DNA of 64,000 nucleotides from a bacterium (GTDB taxonomy: Bacteria; Sumerlaeota; Sumerlaeia; SLMS01; JAHLLQ01), in the NCBI GenBank assembly GCA_020444065.1, contig JAHLLQ010000002.1, positions 1 through 64,000 on the forward strand, read 5' to 3'. Position numbers and translations under genes: made by a program. Shown in pieces: positions 1-8,774 of the stretch (positions within the stretch are counted from its first letter, which is position 1; every line of letters begins with the position of its first letter). Under the pieces are notes generated by a model, which did not search any database, was not told the DNA's origin, and saw only the letters and a list, made by a program, of their open reading frames with translations.

Positions 1-378
1 GTTCCGTGTGGCCTTCCATGACGCGGAGGCAGCGGCCCGAGTCGACATCCCAAAGGCGGATGGTGTTGTCAACGGAGCCGGAAATGGCGCGGCGTCCATC
101 AGGGCTCCACGAGACGCTCCCGACGCGTTCCGTGTGGCCTTCCATGACGCGGAGGCAGCGGCCCGAGTCGACATCCCAAAGGCGGATGGTGTTGTCAACG
201 GAGCCGGAAATGGCGCGGCGTCCATCAGGGCTCCACGAGACGCTCCCGACGCGTTCCGTGTGGCCTTCCATGACGCGGAGGCAGCGGCCCGAGTCGACAT
301 CCCAAAGGCGGATGGTGTTGTCAACGGAGCCGGAAATGGCGCGGCGTCCATCAGGGCTCCACGAGACGCTCCAGACGG
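1..378. repeat. 126-bp tandem repeats encoding WD40 blades
   Basis: Three consecutive 126-bp units start at 1, 127 and 253. The first two are identical over their whole length, and the third differs only at its last few bases (near 373 and 378). A more divergent first blade begins at about 379. 126 bp is 42 codons, exactly one WD40 blade, so gain or loss of units keeps the reading frame. The array continues past the left edge of the window. Confidence 0.95.
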
Positions 379-865
379 GTTCCGTGTGCCCCAGAGATCG
401 CAATTCGACAGCGGGCTCATCTTCGATCGATGCACCCCACGCGCCCCGTCCAGCCGATGGCGGGCGGCAGGCATTGGCGAGGCGCATGTATTCCTCTTCG
501 CGGTTCGCACTGCGCCAATCAGCATACAGAAATTGCCCCAATGACCCCTTGATCGGCGCATCGTCGAGTCGTAGCGGGATGAATCGCCGTTCCTTGTTCA
601 GTGGATCACGGAAGCGAAACGTATAGGATTCTAATCGAGCCCAATCCGACCCAAACGCGTTGGCCGACATACAGAATATCAGAACCCGCGAATGCTCCAG
701 CCCATGCTCGATCTTGGATGGAATGCTATCCGCCAGACCGATCTCCCATTCGTCAAACCACACACTCAAGCCATCATCCCGAAGGCGCTCTGCCAGGGGG
801 CGAACGATTGATTTGTCCTGTGAGCTGTGGCTGATGAAGACGTCGTACTGGAAAGCATCCGACAT
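1..865 (-). CDS. TIR domain-WD40 repeat protein (3' end beyond window)
   Basis: Read on the minus strand from ATG 863-865, with a GGAGGA ribosome site about 10 nt upstream, and open to the left edge (288 codons in the window). Residues 5-130 look like a bacterial TIR domain: YDVFISHSSQDK near the N terminus, a BB-loop-like segment at about 32-48, and a SDWARLE stretch in which E79 sits where TIR NADases carry their catalytic glutamate. A linker follows, then WD40 repeats of 42 residues (GHTE..VGSVSWSPDG...DNTIRLWDV). Four repeats are visible and more must lie outside. TIR domains of this type often cleave NAD+, and TIR-WD40 proteins are known among bacterial immunity-like proteins. NAD+ cleavage triggered by a ligand on the propeller is inference. 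The gene is not paired with any recognised defence gene in the window. No C-terminal domain can be seen because the gene is cut. Confidence 0.88.
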   Translation of the reverse strand, partial: MSDAFQYDVFISHSSQDKSIVRPLAERLRDDGLSVWFDEWEIGLADSIPSKIEHGLEHSRVLIFCMSANAFGSDWARLESYTFRFRDPLNKERRFIPLRLDDAPIKGSLGQFLYADWRSANREEEYMRLANACRPPSAGRGAWGASIEDEPAVELRSLGHTEPVWSVSWSPDGRRAISGSVDNTIRLWDVDSGRCLRVMEGHTERVGSVSWSPDGRRAISGSVDNTIRLWDVDSGRCLRVMEGHTERVGSVSWSPDGRRAISGSVDNTIRLWDVDSGRCLRVMEGHTE

Positions 866-1075: not shown

Positions 1076-4000
1076 TCAACTGCACCCCGTTGTCCCACCG
1101 CAGGTGTCGCACTTGAGACAGGTACCGTTACGCACGAGAGTGAACGAGTAGCAGTTCGGGCACGGGTCGCCTTCGTAGCCTTTCAGCCGGGCGATACGTA
1201 CTTGCTCCTCGCGGGTGATGGTCGCTGTGGCAGTAGCAGGTGCAGGTGCAGGAGCTGGAGCCGGAGCAAGGCGCGGGGACGGTGCGACAGTATCCGCGGC
1301 CGCGGCACCCGAAGAGCTGCCGGAACCGGAACCAGAACCGGAGCGGGAAACGGGCGTCTCGGAGCTTGCGGCCGTCTTTACCTCGGGCGGGAACGGGAGC
1401 ATGTGTTCGCTACGGGGTGGACGGTGCCGCTGGCCGCGGAGTTTTTGGGACTCCCGCGCGTCGACGATCCGTTCGCTCACTACTTCCTCGTCGTCGTATT
1501 CCGCCGCTTCGTTCTGCAGCGCATCGTGCCGCAGCTCTTCCGGCGAAACATGGGCGAGGTCGTAGCGATTCAGATAGCTGATCGCCAACTCGCGGAAAAT
1601 GTAGTCGATGATTGATGTGGAGCGTTTGATGTACGGATTTCCCCGCACCGATCCACTCGGTTCGAATCGCGTGAACACAAACGCGTTCACGAATTTCTCC
1701 AGCGGCACACCGTGCTGCAGACCCAGCGACACGGCGATGGCGAAGCAGTTCATCAGCGAGCGGAACGCCGCGCCTTCCTTGTGCATGTCGATGAAGATCT
1801 CGCCCAGCGTCCCGTCTTCGTACTCGCCGGTGCGCAAGTACACCTTATGCGGGCCGATGGTGGCCTTCTGCGTATAGCCGCTGCGTCTCAGAGGCATGCG
1901 CCGGCGTCGCGACAGGTAGCGATGCACAACGCGTTCGGCAATCTTCGGAATCTCGACTGTCCGAACCGCCTCTTCGATTTCTTCTTCATCGTCCAGGTCT
2001 TCCATCAGATCGGAAACCGAGCTCAAAGGTTGGCTCAGCTTCGAGCCGTCGCGATAGAGCGCGTTGGCTTTAAGCATCAGCTTCCACGACATCATGTACG
2101 CGTCGCCGATGTCTTCGACCAGCGCATCGTTCGGCATGTTGATCGTCTTGCTGATCGCGCCGCTGATGAACGGCTGGGCCGCGGCCATCATTCGAATGTG
2201 CGACGGGTAATCCAGGAAGCGCTTGCCGTACTTGCCGCACTTGTTCGCGCAGTCGAACACGGCCAGATGCTCTTCCTTCAGATCCGGCGCGCCTTCGATC
2301 GTCATCCGGCCGCAGACGTAATCGTTTGCTTCGTCGATCTCTTCGCGCGTGAAGCCCAACGCCTCGAGCATGTTGAAGGACCAATCGTTCAACTGCTCGT
2401 CGGTGAAGCCCAGGTGGTGGCGGCAATTCTCTTCGCCGAGCGTCCACTTGTTGAAAATGAAGCCCAACTCGAACGCGCTCGCCGCCTGCTTCTCCACCGC
2501 ATCGATCATCTCGGCGGTGAAGCCCTTCTCGCGCAGCGCCGCCGGGTTGACATGCGGCGCGCCTTCCAGCGTCAACGTTCCACGCGCGTAATCGATGATG
2601 CGCTTGGCCTGCTCCTCCGAGTAGCCCAGCCGCGTCAGCGCGCGGGGCACGCTCTGGTTGATGATCTTGAAGTAGCCGCCGCCGGCCAGCTTCTTGAACT
2701 TCACCAGCGCGAAGTCCGGCTCGATGCCGGTCGTATCGCAATCCATCAGCAGACCGATCGTTCCGGTTGGTGCGATCACCGTCGTCTGCGCATTGCGATA
2801 GCCGTGCTCTTCGCCGAGCCGCAGCGCCTCATCCCAAGCCTTGCGAGCCGAATCCAGCAGGTCCGCGGGGCAATACTCCGGATCGATCGCCATCGGCTTG
2901 ATCGTGAGGCCTTCGTAGTCCGCTGCCGGCGCGCTGTGCGCGGCGCGACGATGGTTGCGAATCACGCGCAACATCGCATCGCGATTCTTCTCGTAGCCCG
3001 GGAACGTCCCCATTTCGCCGGCCATCTCGGCGCTGGCGGCATACGAAACGCCCGTCATCAGCGCCGTCACCGCGCCGCAGATCGCCGTGGCCTCGGGGCT
3101 GTTGTACGGAATGCCCAGCACCATCAGCAGCGTGCCGAGGTTCGCGTAGCCCAGGCCGAGCGTGCGGAACTCGTAGCTCAACTCCGCGATGCGCTTGCTC
3201 GGGAACTGCGCCATCAGCACGCTGATCTCCAGCGTGATCGTCCAGATTCGGCAGGCATGACGGAAGTCCTCGATGCGGAAACGTCCCGTTTTCTCATCGA
3301 TGAATTTCATCAGGTTCAGCGACGCGAGGTTGCACGCCGTGTCGTCCAGGAACATGTATTCGCTGCACGGGTTGCTGGCGTTGATCCGGCCGCTGTTCGG
3401 GCACGTGTGCCATTCGTTGATCGTCGTGTCGTACTGCAGGCCCGGATCCGCGCAACTCCACGCCGCGTAGGCAATCTGCTGCCACAATTCGCGCGCCTTC
3501 AGCGTCTTGCGGGGCTCGCCCTTCACGCGCTCGACCAGGTTCCAATCGCTGTCGCTGTCGACGGCCTGCAGGAACGCATTCGTCACGCGCACCGAGTTGT
3601 TCGAGTTCTGGCCGCTGACCGTGTAGTACGCTTCGCTGTTCCAGTCGGTATCGTATTCGTCGAATTCGATGCCCTTATAGCCCTGGCGGGCCAGTTGGAT
3701 CACGCGCTGGATGTAATTCTGGGGAACGCCCGCGCGAGCCGCTTCGCGCGCCGCCTTCTTCAGACGCTGGTTCGCGCGCGGATCGAAACGATTGCCGTTC
3801 AGGCTCGCATCGCCCGGCTCGTGGCAAGACGTCATGATTTCGTTCAGGTGCTTGCGGCACAGCTTCGACCCCAGGACCAGCGCGGCCACCTTCTGCTCCT
3901 CGTGAACCTTCCAGTTCACGAACTGCTCGATGTCCGGATGATCGACGTCGAGAACGACCATCTTTGCCGCGCGCCGCGTCGTGCCGCCGCTCTTGATGGC

Positions 4001-4798
4001 GCCGGCTGCGCGGTCGCCGATTTTCAGGAAACTCATCAGGCCGCTGGACTTGCCGCCGCCGGAGAGCGCCTCGCCCTCGGCGCGCAGCTTCGAGAAGTTA
4101 CTTCCCGTGCCGCTGCCGTACTTGAAGACGCGCGCCTCGCGCGTCCACAGATCCATAATGCCGCCTTCGTTCACCAGATCGTCGGAAACGGACTGGATGA
4201 AGCATGCGTGCGGCTGAGGCCGTTCGTAGGCCGACTTGCTGCGCATGGACTTGCTGGACTTCGGATCGACGTAGTGATGTCCCTGCGCCGGTCCTGTGAT
4301 GCCGTAGGCCCAGTGCAGGCCCGTGTTGAACCACTGCGGGCTGTTCGGAGCCGCCATCTGCTTCGCCAGCATGTGGCAGTTCTCATCGTAGTACGCGCGG
4401 GCATCTTCTTCGGTGTCGAAGTAGCCGTGCTTCCAGCCCCAATACGTCCAGCAGCCCGCCAGACGGTGGAACACGGCGCGAGTGTCGTTCTCGCCAGCCG
4501 TGTGCTGGTTGGCGGGCAGGTCCGCCAGGCGCTTGTCGTCCGGCACGTGGCGCTGCAGCCAGGTCGGGACGTCCTTCTCCGAGACGGGCCGCGTCGCCAC
4601 CGGGACGCCCGCCTTGCGGAAGTACTTCTGCGCCATGATATCTACGGCGATCTGGCTCCAGTGCTCCGGGACCTGAACGTCCTTGGCCTCGAACACCACC
4701 GAACCGTCCGGATTGACGATTCGGGAGGAGGCCGACTTGAACGGGATACCGGCATAGGGATCCTGACCGGTCCTCGTGAATCGGCGACTGATTTTCAT
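1076..4798 (-). CDS. nrdJ: Adenosylcobalamin-dependent (class II) ribonucleotide reductase
   Basis: A 1240-residue protein that reduces ribonucleotides to deoxyribonucleotides using a cobalamin-derived thiyl radical. The glycyl/thiyl barrel carries an NPCSE motif at 476-480, with Cys478 in the radical cysteine position, and the [19 protein letters not shown] region typical of the large bacterial NrdJ group. After the catalytic domain comes a low-complexity linker rich in Gly-Ser and then Ala-Pro (about 1145-1190). The last 28 residues are a cysteine-rich CxxC...CxxC...GCS tail, which in this family shuttles reducing equivalents or binds zinc. The ATG at 4798 follows a GGGGGT ribosome site. 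The gene stands alone, with a long 5' region (see the 9-mer array) and its own terminator. No cobalamin riboswitch core was recognised upstream. Confidence 0.95.
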
Positions 4799-6803: not shown

Positions 6804-8007
6804 CGCCGAGGCGCCGACTGGCGTTCTCGGAGCGGAACAATGGGACATCGTGCGGCTGGTCGCCACCGGCGCGGCGGGTGTGCTGTCCTTGTTTGCGGCC
6901 TTCTGGGCGCGCGGTGGGGAAGGGCTGCTTTTCGCCTGCATCTGGAGCGCATTGCTCGTCCTCGCGTTGTACCTCAGCCGATTGTTCGCCCCCGTTCTGT
7001 TCGAGATCTTCGCGCAGATGCACTACAAGGAACGTTTCGCCATGTTCCTGGCGCACGTTGGCGCGATGTTGATCCCCGTGCTGTTCGGAATCAAAGGCGT
7101 GGATCACGCGTGCGCCGCTTTGCTGGTATTCACCGGATTGCTGGCGATCGGCCCGGTGCAGAGCGGCCGCGTTTACGCAACGAGCGGCCTCCTCGTCACC
7201 CTTGGCATTCTCTCCCCGCCCCTTCCGCCTTTTGCCATCACGGCAGTCTGGATTCTCGCGTTACTCATTGCCTTCCGCGCGGAGTACCTCCACTCGCGCC
7301 TCGACGAACATGGCACCGGGCCGGGCGCACCGGCGCGAGATGTTGCCCGCGAATCCATTGTGGCGATCTTGATCCCGTGGGTCATTGGGCTCGCATCATG
7401 GGGAGTCCTCGCCTGGGCATTGCGCGGCAAGACCCGGGAGCTCGTCTTCAAAGGGTCCCCGCGCCAGGGCGTGTCGCCCATCGGACCGGTGAGCTACTCC
7501 GATGTCTACTGGGACGCGATCATGATGGTGATCCTAATCATCGCAACTCTTGGAACGATCGCATGGATCGACCGCAAGTTGCGTTCGCGGCGGCGCGGCA
7601 GCCAGGAATTCGGCGAGGGCGAGTTGAAGGCTTTCGAACGCCGTTCCGCGCGCATTCCCGAGGACGATGAAGAAGTCGAGCTTGAGGAATCCAGCGATGC
7701 CCGGGGCCGCGTCCTGGCGGCGTTCCGGCGCTTTGCGACATCGATGGGGCGCGCTGGTTGGGGGCGTGACGACGGCGAGACGGTGCGCGTGTACTTCACC
7801 CGCCTTGCCCAGCGCCTCCTTGCCGGAGAGGATACCGTGCCCCAACTCGATCCGCTCTTTTCCCGTGCCTGCTATTCATCCCTGGACGTGTCGGATGAAG
7901 AAGCGGCAGAGTTCCTTCGCGATATCGAGTCTCTTGAGCCGCGCCTGCACGAGGTCCTCGAGCGCGAGAAGGCCCGCCAGCGAGTCGAAGAGGCCGAAGA
8001 AGAATGA
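6778..8007 (+). CDS. Multi-pass membrane protein with DUF4129-like C terminus
   Basis: A 409-residue protein. Roughly six hydrophobic segments occupy the first 180 residues, another is at about 205-225, one more lies near 255-275, and a charged cytoplasmic tail follows. The tail, with RVLAAFRRFATSMG...ETVRVYFTRLAQ, resembles the DUF4129 domain found next to DUF58 and transglutaminase genes, though a transglutaminase domain is not visible. ATG 6778 is preceded by AGGAG 11 nt upstream inside the DUF58 gene; an in-frame ATG at 6757 lacks such a site. The stop codon overlaps the methyltransferase start (ATGA at 8004-8007). It probably works with the DUF58 protein at the membrane. Confidence 0.7.
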   Translation: MMRSWSDSDAEAPTGVLGAEQWDIVRLVATGAAGVLSLFAAFWARGGEGLLFACIWSALLVLALYLSRLFAPVLFEIFAQMHYKERFAMFLAHVGAMLIPVLFGIKGVDHACAALLVFTGLLAIGPVQSGRVYATSGLLVTLGILSPPLPPFAITAVWILALLIAFRAEYLHSRLDEHGTGPGAPARDVARESIVAILIPWVIGLASWGVLAWALRGKTRELVFKGSPRQGVSPIGPVSYSDVYWDAIMMVILIIATLGTIAWIDRKLRSRRRGSQEFGEGELKAFERRSARIPEDDEEVELEESSDARGRVLAAFRRFATSMGRAGWGRDDGETVRVYFTRLAQRLLAGEDTVPQLDPLFSRACYSSLDVSDEEAAEFLRDIESLEPRLHEVLEREKARQRVEEAEEE

Positions 8008-8774
8008 GCGACTTCCAGATCGAGCATTCTGACGCCCTTGCCGCCGCTGCCGAGCACCAGCCGGGCAGCTTCACAATGATCTACCTCGATCCGCCCTTCT
8101 TCACCGGTAAGAAATGGAAGGGCAAGGAGGCTGGCGACTTCGCCGACACTTGGCGGCGAGACATCGGCAGCTACGTCGATTACCTGGGCGAACGAATCGC
8201 CGCCATGAAGCCTCTCCTCAACGACCGAGGATCCTTGTTCCTCCATCTCGACTGGCGCGCCGTGCATTACATGAAGGTGCGTTGCGACGAGATCTTTGGC
8301 GCAAAGCGCTTCATCAACGAAATCATCTGGTCCTATCGCTCCGGCGGTGGGACAAAGAATCGGTACGGGCGAAAGCACGATACCATCCTCTGGTACGCGG
8401 CCGGTCGACATCCCCTCTTCAACGACGACGAAGCGCGCGTGCCGTACGACGCCGTGATTGCAAAGAAGCGCGCCCACCTCTTCGATGACCGCGGAAAGGT
8501 CAGCGGCGACGTGCTCGACATCAATCGTCCGCCGAATCACGCCAAGGAATGGACCGGCTGGCCGACGCAGAAGCCGCTGGCTCTGCTGGAGTGGCTGGTC
8601 AAGGTCCACACCCGGCCGGGCGACCTTGTCGGAGACTTCTTCTGCGGCAGTGGCACCACGCTGCTCGCCGCCATCCGCCATGGCCGCCGCGCCTGGGGCT
8701 GCGACGCCTCGGCCGACGCCGTGGAAATCGCCCGCGGGCGGCTGATGGCCGAATCCGACGAATCCTCTCATTGA
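8004..8774 (+). CDS. Orphan DNA methyltransferase, N4/N6 beta class
   Basis: A 256-residue amino-methyltransferase. The catalytic DPPF motif is near the N terminus (residues 29-32) and the AdoMet-binding FCGSGTT motif near residue 214, the order of beta-class enzymes. A central region (about 60-170) probably holds target recognition. DPPF predicts transfer to an exocyclic amino group of adenine or cytosine. No restriction endonuclease gene is near, so it is an orphan methylase by context. It starts within the stop codon of the membrane protein gene (ATGA), so its translation is coupled to an apparently unrelated operon. Target sequence cannot be read from the protein. Confidence 0.88.
   Translation: MSDFQIEHSDALAAAAEHQPGSFTMIYLDPPFFTGKKWKGKEAGDFADTWRRDIGSYVDYLGERIAAMKPLLNDRGSLFLHLDWRAVHYMKVRCDEIFGAKRFINEIIWSYRSGGGTKNRYGRKHDTILWYAAGRHPLFNDDEARVPYDAVIAKKRAHLFDDRGKVSGDVLDINRPPNHAKEWTGWPTQKPLALLEWLVKVHTRPGDLVGDFFCGSGTTLLAAIRHGRRAWGCDASADAVEIARGRLMAESDESSH

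What the first reader, a model, noticed from the sequence alone, without database searches (positions are those of the whole stretch)
1..378. WD40 blades identical at DNA level (homogenised repeat array)
Units 1-126 and 127-252 are identical, and 253-378 differs by two bases. Synonymous positions are identical too, so the array is recent or maintained by recombination. High-identity WD40 repeats occur in proteins that change recognition specificity by repeat gain and loss, which fits an immune sensor.
Basis: seen in the sequence. Interest (0 to 1): 0.7.

Follow-up and report, generated by a model that had tools for sequence, protein, structure and literature searches.

The report
Repeat-swapping bacterial immune-type receptor
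The identical repeats are the start of a collapsed beta-propeller sensor in a large TIR-WD40-Roco-nuclease protein that looks like a bacterial immune receptor; in its relatives the propeller is rebuilt so fast, with changes concentrated on its binding face, that it resembles the self/non-self receptors of fungi.

Summary
In detail: 1-126 and 127-252 are identical and 253-378 differs at 373 and 378. The window starts at a contig end inside a minus-strand gene (865 leftwards): TIR domain, then three WD40 blades. The other half was found at the end of another contig of the same genome (C8), in the same frame, strand and repeat phase: last blade, Roc GTPase, COR, zinc ribbon and DUF4365 (PD-(D/E)xK nuclease). 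So the array is an assembly break with unknown copy number (at least 4 blades; 7 or 14 expected). The family is spread thinly (about 1% of genomes sampled) over many bacterial phyla and an archaeon. Across it, blades at the same place are mostly no more alike than other blades, even where the rest of the protein is 71-81% identical. Within repetitive arrays the changes concentrate at blade codons 4, 6, 22 and 24, the codons positively selected in fungal HET-E/HNWD receptors; the window's only two differences are at codons 4 and 6. Homogenised WD40 arrays and face variability are already known; the TIR-WD40-Roco-DUF4365 context, as far as I could find, is not described. No functional test exists; the defence role is inferred.

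The parts
2..865 (-). 5' part of the TIR-WD40-Roco-DUF4365 gene (288 codons, start ATG at 865); runs off the contig at base 1 and resumes on contig C8 191448-189235
482..841 (-). TIR domain (PF13676, residues 9-128), with the conserved SDWARLE motif that holds the putative catalytic Glu79 (bases 629-631)
389..481 (-). linker between TIR and propeller
263..388 (-). blade 1 (HTEPVWSVSW...), N-terminal blade
137..262 (-). blade 2 (HTERVGSVSW...)
11..136 (-). blade 3, identical to blade 2 at DNA level
2..10 (-). first codons of a further blade (HTE), cut by the contig end
377..379 (-). codon 4 of blade 1 (Pro; Arg in blades 2-3), position R1-2 of the top face; single difference at base 378
371..373 (-). 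codon 6 of blade 1 (Trp; Gly in blades 2-3), position R1 of the top face; single difference at base 373
1..40 (-). 40 bases identical to the right end of contig C8 (junction of the two halves)

Best explanation
The window shows the N-terminal part of a single-gene conflict (probably anti-phage) receptor: TIR - WD40 propeller(s) - Roc-COR GTPase - zinc ribbon - DUF4365 nuclease. Proposed working: the propeller top face binds an invader or cell-state ligand (inferred); binding is relayed to the Roc-COR switch, which dimerises or opens (inferred from Roco proteins); the two end domains are then released, TIR consuming NAD+ and DUF4365 cutting nucleic acid, so that the infected cell stops or dies (inferred from TIR and DUF4365 systems). 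The array is homogenised because a blade has recently been amplified, or blades are exchanged by recombination (shown at sequence level, mechanism inferred). Selection then keeps new residues at four face codons per blade (pattern shown, cause inferred), so specificity is renewed while the fold stays constant.
For: Architecture: TIR and WD40 by Pfam; WD40, Roc and DUF4365 on the C8 half; COR by sequence match to solved Roco proteins 4wnr, 3dpu and 6hlu and by fold (6hlu over 518 columns, 4wnr over 342). The halves belong together: 40-base overlap, same frame and phase, and complete relatives with the same order of domains. Putative active sites kept: TIR Glu, WDFGGQ, DUF4365 GID...QLK. Modular effectors around the same WD40-Roc core: members without TIR (L125, L128) and members with a C-terminal cyclase-like domain and/or TIR (L134-L136). 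Face diversification: in six repetitive arrays codons 4, 6, 22, 24 differ in 82% of blade pairs against 16% for the others; this quartet, taken from the fungal paper PMC2873952 (codons 7, 9, 25, 27, same spacing), is the most variable of 111,930 quartets; dN at these codons over dS of the whole array is 1.5 to 7 in five arrays and off scale in the sixth. Turnover: L036/L124 are 81% identical in the C-terminal half, yet same-place blades 40% against 42% for others; L038/L042 lie at the same locus (five of seven flanking proteins 86-97% identical) with 71-78% identity outside the array and 52% against 52% in blades. Thin, cross-phylum distribution.
Against: No experiment. No defence island around the window gene (RNase E/G on one side, B12-dependent RNR on the other) and only isolated defence-family hits beside relatives. 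No phage or virus context and only partial, 28-32% identical plasmid hits. In the window itself only two differences can be seen. Face codons are exposed, so relaxed constraint adds to their variability. Pairs of blades are not independent, so the dN/dS values are descriptive. Adjacency of C8 and C2 is inferred, not read; the neighbours are not adjacent in relatives, which settles nothing.
Confidence: 0.68

Rival explanations
1. A recently amplified propeller without immune role: blades are continually amplified from single units in bacteria, and this one sits in a Roco signalling protein with an ordinary cellular ligand. Face codons vary because they are the least constrained part of a blade.
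For: Highly repetitive propellers are common in prokaryotes and arise independently many times (PMC9218822; PMC5587647). No defence neighbourhood. Face positions are exposed loops.
Against: dN at the four face codons exceeds dS of the same arrays in the arrays measured, which relaxed constraint alone does not give. TIR plus nuclease ends, effector swapping, thin cross-phylum spread and loss of place-by-place homology at 71-81% backbone identity fit conflict better.
Confidence: 0.22
2. The perfect identity is partly an assembly artefact: a short-read assembler collapsed several slightly different blades or walked a repeat loop more than once, so the true copies differ more than the window shows.
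For: The window starts at a contig end inside the array and the other half ends another contig. Relatives show the same failures: runs of N (L083/L133), contigs ending in the array (L043, L045, L048, L120, L127), arrays of 2 or 4 blades (L040, L035) where assembled, less repetitive members have 7 or 14. In Podospora such arrays are split, N-filled or chimeric in SPAdes assemblies (PMC12222747).
Against: Contig-internal arrays in relatives are also highly repetitive (L039 in a 709 kb contig, L130, and L129 in an 8.9 Mb contig), so homogenisation is real in the family. The two differing bases are both nonsynonymous and at face codons, which an assembler would not arrange.
Confidence: 0.25

Closest known systems
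HET-E / HET-D / HNWD fungal NLRs (Podospora)
   Same: 42-residue WD40 units of high internal identity; concerted evolution; same four face codons variable (7, 9, 25, 27 there; 4, 6, 22, 24 here); same assembly problems (PMC2873952, PMC12222747)
   Different: fungal proteins have a central NACHT ATPase and other effectors, with WD40 at the C-terminus; here Roc-COR GTPase, TIR and DUF4365, with the propeller between TIR and GTPase
WRAP proteins of cyanobacteria (Npun_R6612, PDB 2ymu)
   Same: near-identical WD40 blades without synonymous changes, independent amplification, proposed innate immunity (PMC9218822); 2ymu is the best sequence match of the blades among solved structures (that 2ymu is the WRAP protein is from memory)
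   Different: STAND ATPase with C-terminal WRAP, TIR in a separate protein; no Roc-COR or DUF4365
Prokaryotic Roco proteins (C. tepidum Roco, M. barkeri Roco2)
   Same: Roc-COR tandem by sequence and fold
   Different: those described have LRR in front of Roc-COR; a 2019 review places all known prokaryotic Roco proteins in the LRR group (PMC6337361)
AP-GTPase/COR conflict systems (Kaur et al. 2021, PMC8195603)
   Same: Roc-type GTPase with COR, fast-evolving repeat sensor, many exchangeable effectors including TIR
   Different: sensor described there is LRR at the N-terminus and effector at the C-terminus; here WD40 sensor and effectors at both ends; their supplementary gene lists were not read
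DUF4365-APAZ / short Argonaute (SPARDA-type) nuclease effector
   Same: DUF4365 domain with the Q-x-K motif; non-specific DNA cleavage on activation (PMC10810196)
   Different: activated there by guide RNA and Argonaute; no Argonaute here

Membership tests
Roco (Roc-COR) proteins | Roc GTPase domain | tested here: met
   PF08477 E 9e-17 on the C8 half; G3 motif WDFGGQ
Roco (Roc-COR) proteins | COR domain directly after Roc | tested here: met
   phmmer to 4wnr (query 57-317), 3dpu (45-328), 6hlu (46-324); Foldseek 6hlu, 4wnr with the model of relative L036. No Pfam COR hit at E 0.001
Roco (Roc-COR) proteins | LRR in front of Roc-COR, as in the described prokaryotic members | tested here: not met
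   WD40 in that place; L036 model has 28 strands (seven four-stranded blades) in residues 165-454
TIR domain NADases | TIR_2 domain with the Glu of the S-x-W-x-x-x-E motif | tested here: met
   PF13676 E 5e-27; SDWARLE, E79 invariant in the alignment of relatives
TIR domain NADases | NAD+ hydrolysis | not testable with these tools
   needs an enzyme assay
DUF4365 (PD-(D/E)xK) nucleases | domain match and D...QxK motif | tested here: met
   PF14280 E 1e-14; GIDMELEF...LYLQLKSG; Q and K were mutated to inactivate TmuRE
Highly repetitive WD40 / recently amplified propellers | internal blade identity of at least 0.7 | tested here: met
   0.97 over three blades; full array unread
STAND NLR (HNWD / WRAP type) | NACHT or other STAND ATPase | tested here: not met
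   no such domain in the Pfam scans of either half (the first table shows 25 of 42 families); the switch is a Roc GTPase
Named defence systems in PADLOC or NCBIfam | full-length match to a system protein | tested here: not met
   only TIR, WD40 or DUF4365 pieces match, NCBIfam scores far below equivalog cut-offs

The most novel reading that the evidence does not exclude
A prokaryotic Roco family that renews its recognition specificity by rebuilding its propeller through repeat amplification and exchange, keeping diversity at four face codons per blade, the same solution that fungi reached with HNWD receptors; strains of one species would then carry different arrays.
Probability: 0.4. Interest if true: 0.75.

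Novelty: new variant of a known kind. Interest (0 to 1): 0.55.

Why it matters
If true, hypervariable repeat receptors with self-renewing arrays are not limited to fungal NLRs: a GTPase-switched version runs in bacteria and an archaeon, armed with a TIR and a nuclease in one protein. It gives a testable prokaryotic model for how propeller arrays change specificity, and a prokaryotic relative of LRRK2 with a likely purpose. It also warns that such genes are often broken in short-read genomes, so they are undercounted and annotated as fragments.

Tried and rejected
Empty-site and synteny test of the C8-C2 junction: RNase E/G and RNR lie on different contigs in the same-family genomes; uninformative. 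Ordinary-WD40 control for the place-by-place test: the kinase-WD40 protein of C6 has no clear orthologue in its family; instead the pair L126/L128 (65% C-terminal identity) still keeps place homology (0.52 against 0.43, p 0.025), showing that the test can detect it. Viral contigs: no relative. Plasmids: only two partial hits at 28-32% identity. A motif on contig C10 that looked like sequencing-adapter contamination was a coincidence, with different codons. A first choice of face positions (4, 6, 21) was a miscount; Asp of the tetrad is at 23, so D-1 is 22. Foldseek and VIA-align with the C-terminal model are dominated by small GTPases; zinc ribbon and DUF4365 folds were not tested on their own. 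The full-length model of L036 has a weak TIR (pLDDT about 50) but a confident propeller.

Full report
What was seen. The 126-base units at 1-252 are identical and the third differs at two bases, 373 and 378. It is the only strong tandem array in the window (score 762 against 56). With window codon usage, equal codons at all 42 positions of two equal blades would have a probability of about 10^-15.5. The two other proteins of the same genome with ten or more blades have ordinary, diverged blades (mean nucleotide identity 0.45 and 0.51), so this is not a genome-wide habit.

The gene and its missing half. The array lies in a minus-strand gene that starts at 865 and runs off base 1, which is the first base of contig C2. 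Pfam finds TIR_2 in residues 9-128 and WD40 after it. A search of the same genome with the array found one other strong place, the last 84 bases of contig C8. There the minus strand enters in the same frame with SGRCLRVMEGHTERVGSVCWSPDG and continues for 738 codons: a closing blade, Roc GTPase, a COR region, a zinc ribbon (read from a CxxC...CxxC pattern) and DUF4365. The last 40 bases of C8 equal the first 40 of C2, the longest end-to-end overlap under 200 bases. I take C8 and C2 as neighbours; complete relatives with the same domain order make this likely, but no read shows it.

How many blades. Three full blades are on C2 and one on C8. Complete, well assembled relatives have 7 (L036, L037, L039, L041, L124), 8 (L130) or 14 (L038, L042, L129) detected blades. 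The low counts (2 in L040, 4 in L035) and the broken arrays (L043, L045, L048, L083/L133, L120, L127) are mostly among the repetitive members, as expected from short-read assembly of such arrays (PMC12222747). The AlphaFold model of L036 shows 28 strands, seven four-stranded blades, with pLDDT about 70-93. I expect 7 or 14 blades here, so hundreds of bases are probably missing between C8 and C2.

The family. Members with this architecture come from Acidobacteria, Desulfuromonadales, Nitrotoga, Chthonomonas, Aminicenantes and the archaeon Methanoperedens, and the core also from Planctomycetota and Cyanobacteria. In samples of about 300-350 genomes of four groups, 2 to 4 genomes each had a match at E <= 1e-60, the seed genomes included; in the window's own phylum 1 of 40 genomes matched at E <= 1e-20, the window's own. 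The window protein's C-terminal half is 70-72% identical to proteins of a genome from the acidobacterial sample, a Desulfuromonadales bacterium and Nitrotoga. GC at third positions is 0.63-0.68 in the gene against 0.82 in the neighbouring RNR. This fits horizontal spread. Effectors are exchanged around the WD40-Roc core: TIR is absent in L125 and L128; DUF4365 is replaced by a cyclase-like domain and/or a C-terminal TIR in L134-L136 (domains read from sequence, not scanned).

Blade turnover. For pairs of relatives I compared blades at the same place with blades at other places. L036 and L124 are 81% identical in the C-terminal half, but same-place blades are 40% identical and others 42%. L038 and L042 sit at the same locus (of seven flanking protein pairs five are 86-97% identical, two 65-76%), have 78% identical TIR and 71% identical C-terminal halves, and 52% against 52% in blades. 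In contrast L126 and L128, at 65%, still keep place homology (p 0.025). In the most repetitive arrays the nearest blade is almost always in the same gene (L130 7/7, L039 6/6, L129 12/12, L125 5/5, L120 3/3). The window's three closest relatives have diverged blades, so its array was probably rebuilt after they split; this is an inference from a partly read array.

Face codons. Podospora HNWD repeats are under positive selection at codons 7, 9, 25 and 27 of the unit (PMC2873952). In the register used here (unit starts HTxxVxSV) the same spacing gives codons 4, 6, 22, 24; 4, 6 and 22 are the R1-2, R1 and D-1 contact positions of the WD40 top face (PMC3419727). In six repetitive arrays (mean blade identity 0.6 or more) these codons differ in 82% of blade pairs against 16% elsewhere, and no other quartet of 111,930 is as variable. 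The variable positions had been seen in a first look before the fungal codons were read, but the quartet tested is the published one. dN at these codons over dS of the whole array is 1.5, 2.6, 6.0, 6.8 and 7.2, and off scale in the sixth. These are descriptive figures: blade pairs are not independent. In ten diverged arrays only eight quartets are more variable, so part of the effect is general exposure. The window's two differences are at codons 4 (Arg/Pro) and 6 (Gly/Trp), both nonsynonymous, with no other difference in 126 bases.

How it may work. Shown: domain order, kept motifs, array homogeneity, face variability, turnover. Inferred: ligand binding by the face, GTPase switching, NAD+ loss by TIR and nucleic-acid cleavage by DUF4365 on activation. 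DUF4365 in a short-Argonaute system cuts DNA non-specifically when activated, and its Q and K residues were mutated to inactivate it (PMC10810196); the same Q-x-K is present here. AP-GTPase/COR proteins with repeat sensors and exchangeable effectors have been proposed as counter-invader systems (PMC8195603).

What is known already. Highly repetitive WD40 proteins in prokaryotes, their recent amplification, their variable hotspot positions and a possible immune role have been published (PMC5587647; PMC9218822). The array by itself is therefore ordinary of its kind. I found no description of a TIR-WD40-Roc-COR-DUF4365 protein in the open library, and a 2019 review knew only LRR-type prokaryotic Roco proteins (PMC6337361); closed papers and supplementary tables were not read, so the claim is limited to that.

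Verdict. New variant of a known kind: a Roco protein with a homogenised WD40 sensor and effectors at both ends. Interest 0.55.

Noticed in passing
window 1076-4798 and relatives G003:C88, G006:C8, G008:C95, G001:C35: The B12-dependent ribonucleotide reductase next to the gene has homologues in same-family and same-order genomes whose open frames are 1479-2030 aa, with an insertion of about 1 kb visible in G003 and G006; probably inteins, absent from the window copy.
   Followed up: no
L134, L135, L136: Related WD40-Roc proteins carry what reads as a nucleotide cyclase (AIVFTDxVGxTAL) and/or a TIR at the C-terminus instead of DUF4365, suggesting a wider family with exchangeable effectors.
   Followed up: partly
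L125, L128: WD40-Roc-DUF4365 proteins that lack the N-terminal TIR.
   Followed up: partly
G000:C6 101498-103327 (L091) and G000:C4 about 319104-320744 (L092): The same genome has large proteins with 10-11 ordinary diverged WD40 blades (the C6 one with a Ser/Thr kinase-like region) and similar C-terminal domains.
   Followed up: partly
window 1-378 against 380-865: The array has 66% GC, the TIR part 57% and the C8 half 56%, so the array differs in composition from the rest of its own gene.
   Followed up: no
window 8004-8774 (+): ORF resembling a solitary DNA methyltransferase (SFTMIYLDPPFFTGKKWKGK), next to a gene that reads like ftsY.
   Followed up: no
L038 and L042: Two related genomes hold the TIR-WD40-Roc gene at the same locus with 14 blades each but no blade-by-blade correspondence; a natural test pair.
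   Followed up: yes
G070 (C445, C48, C137, C120; contigs of L043 and L045): A Gemmataceae genome holds several members of the WD40-Roc family, some cut inside the array by contig ends.
   Followed up: partly
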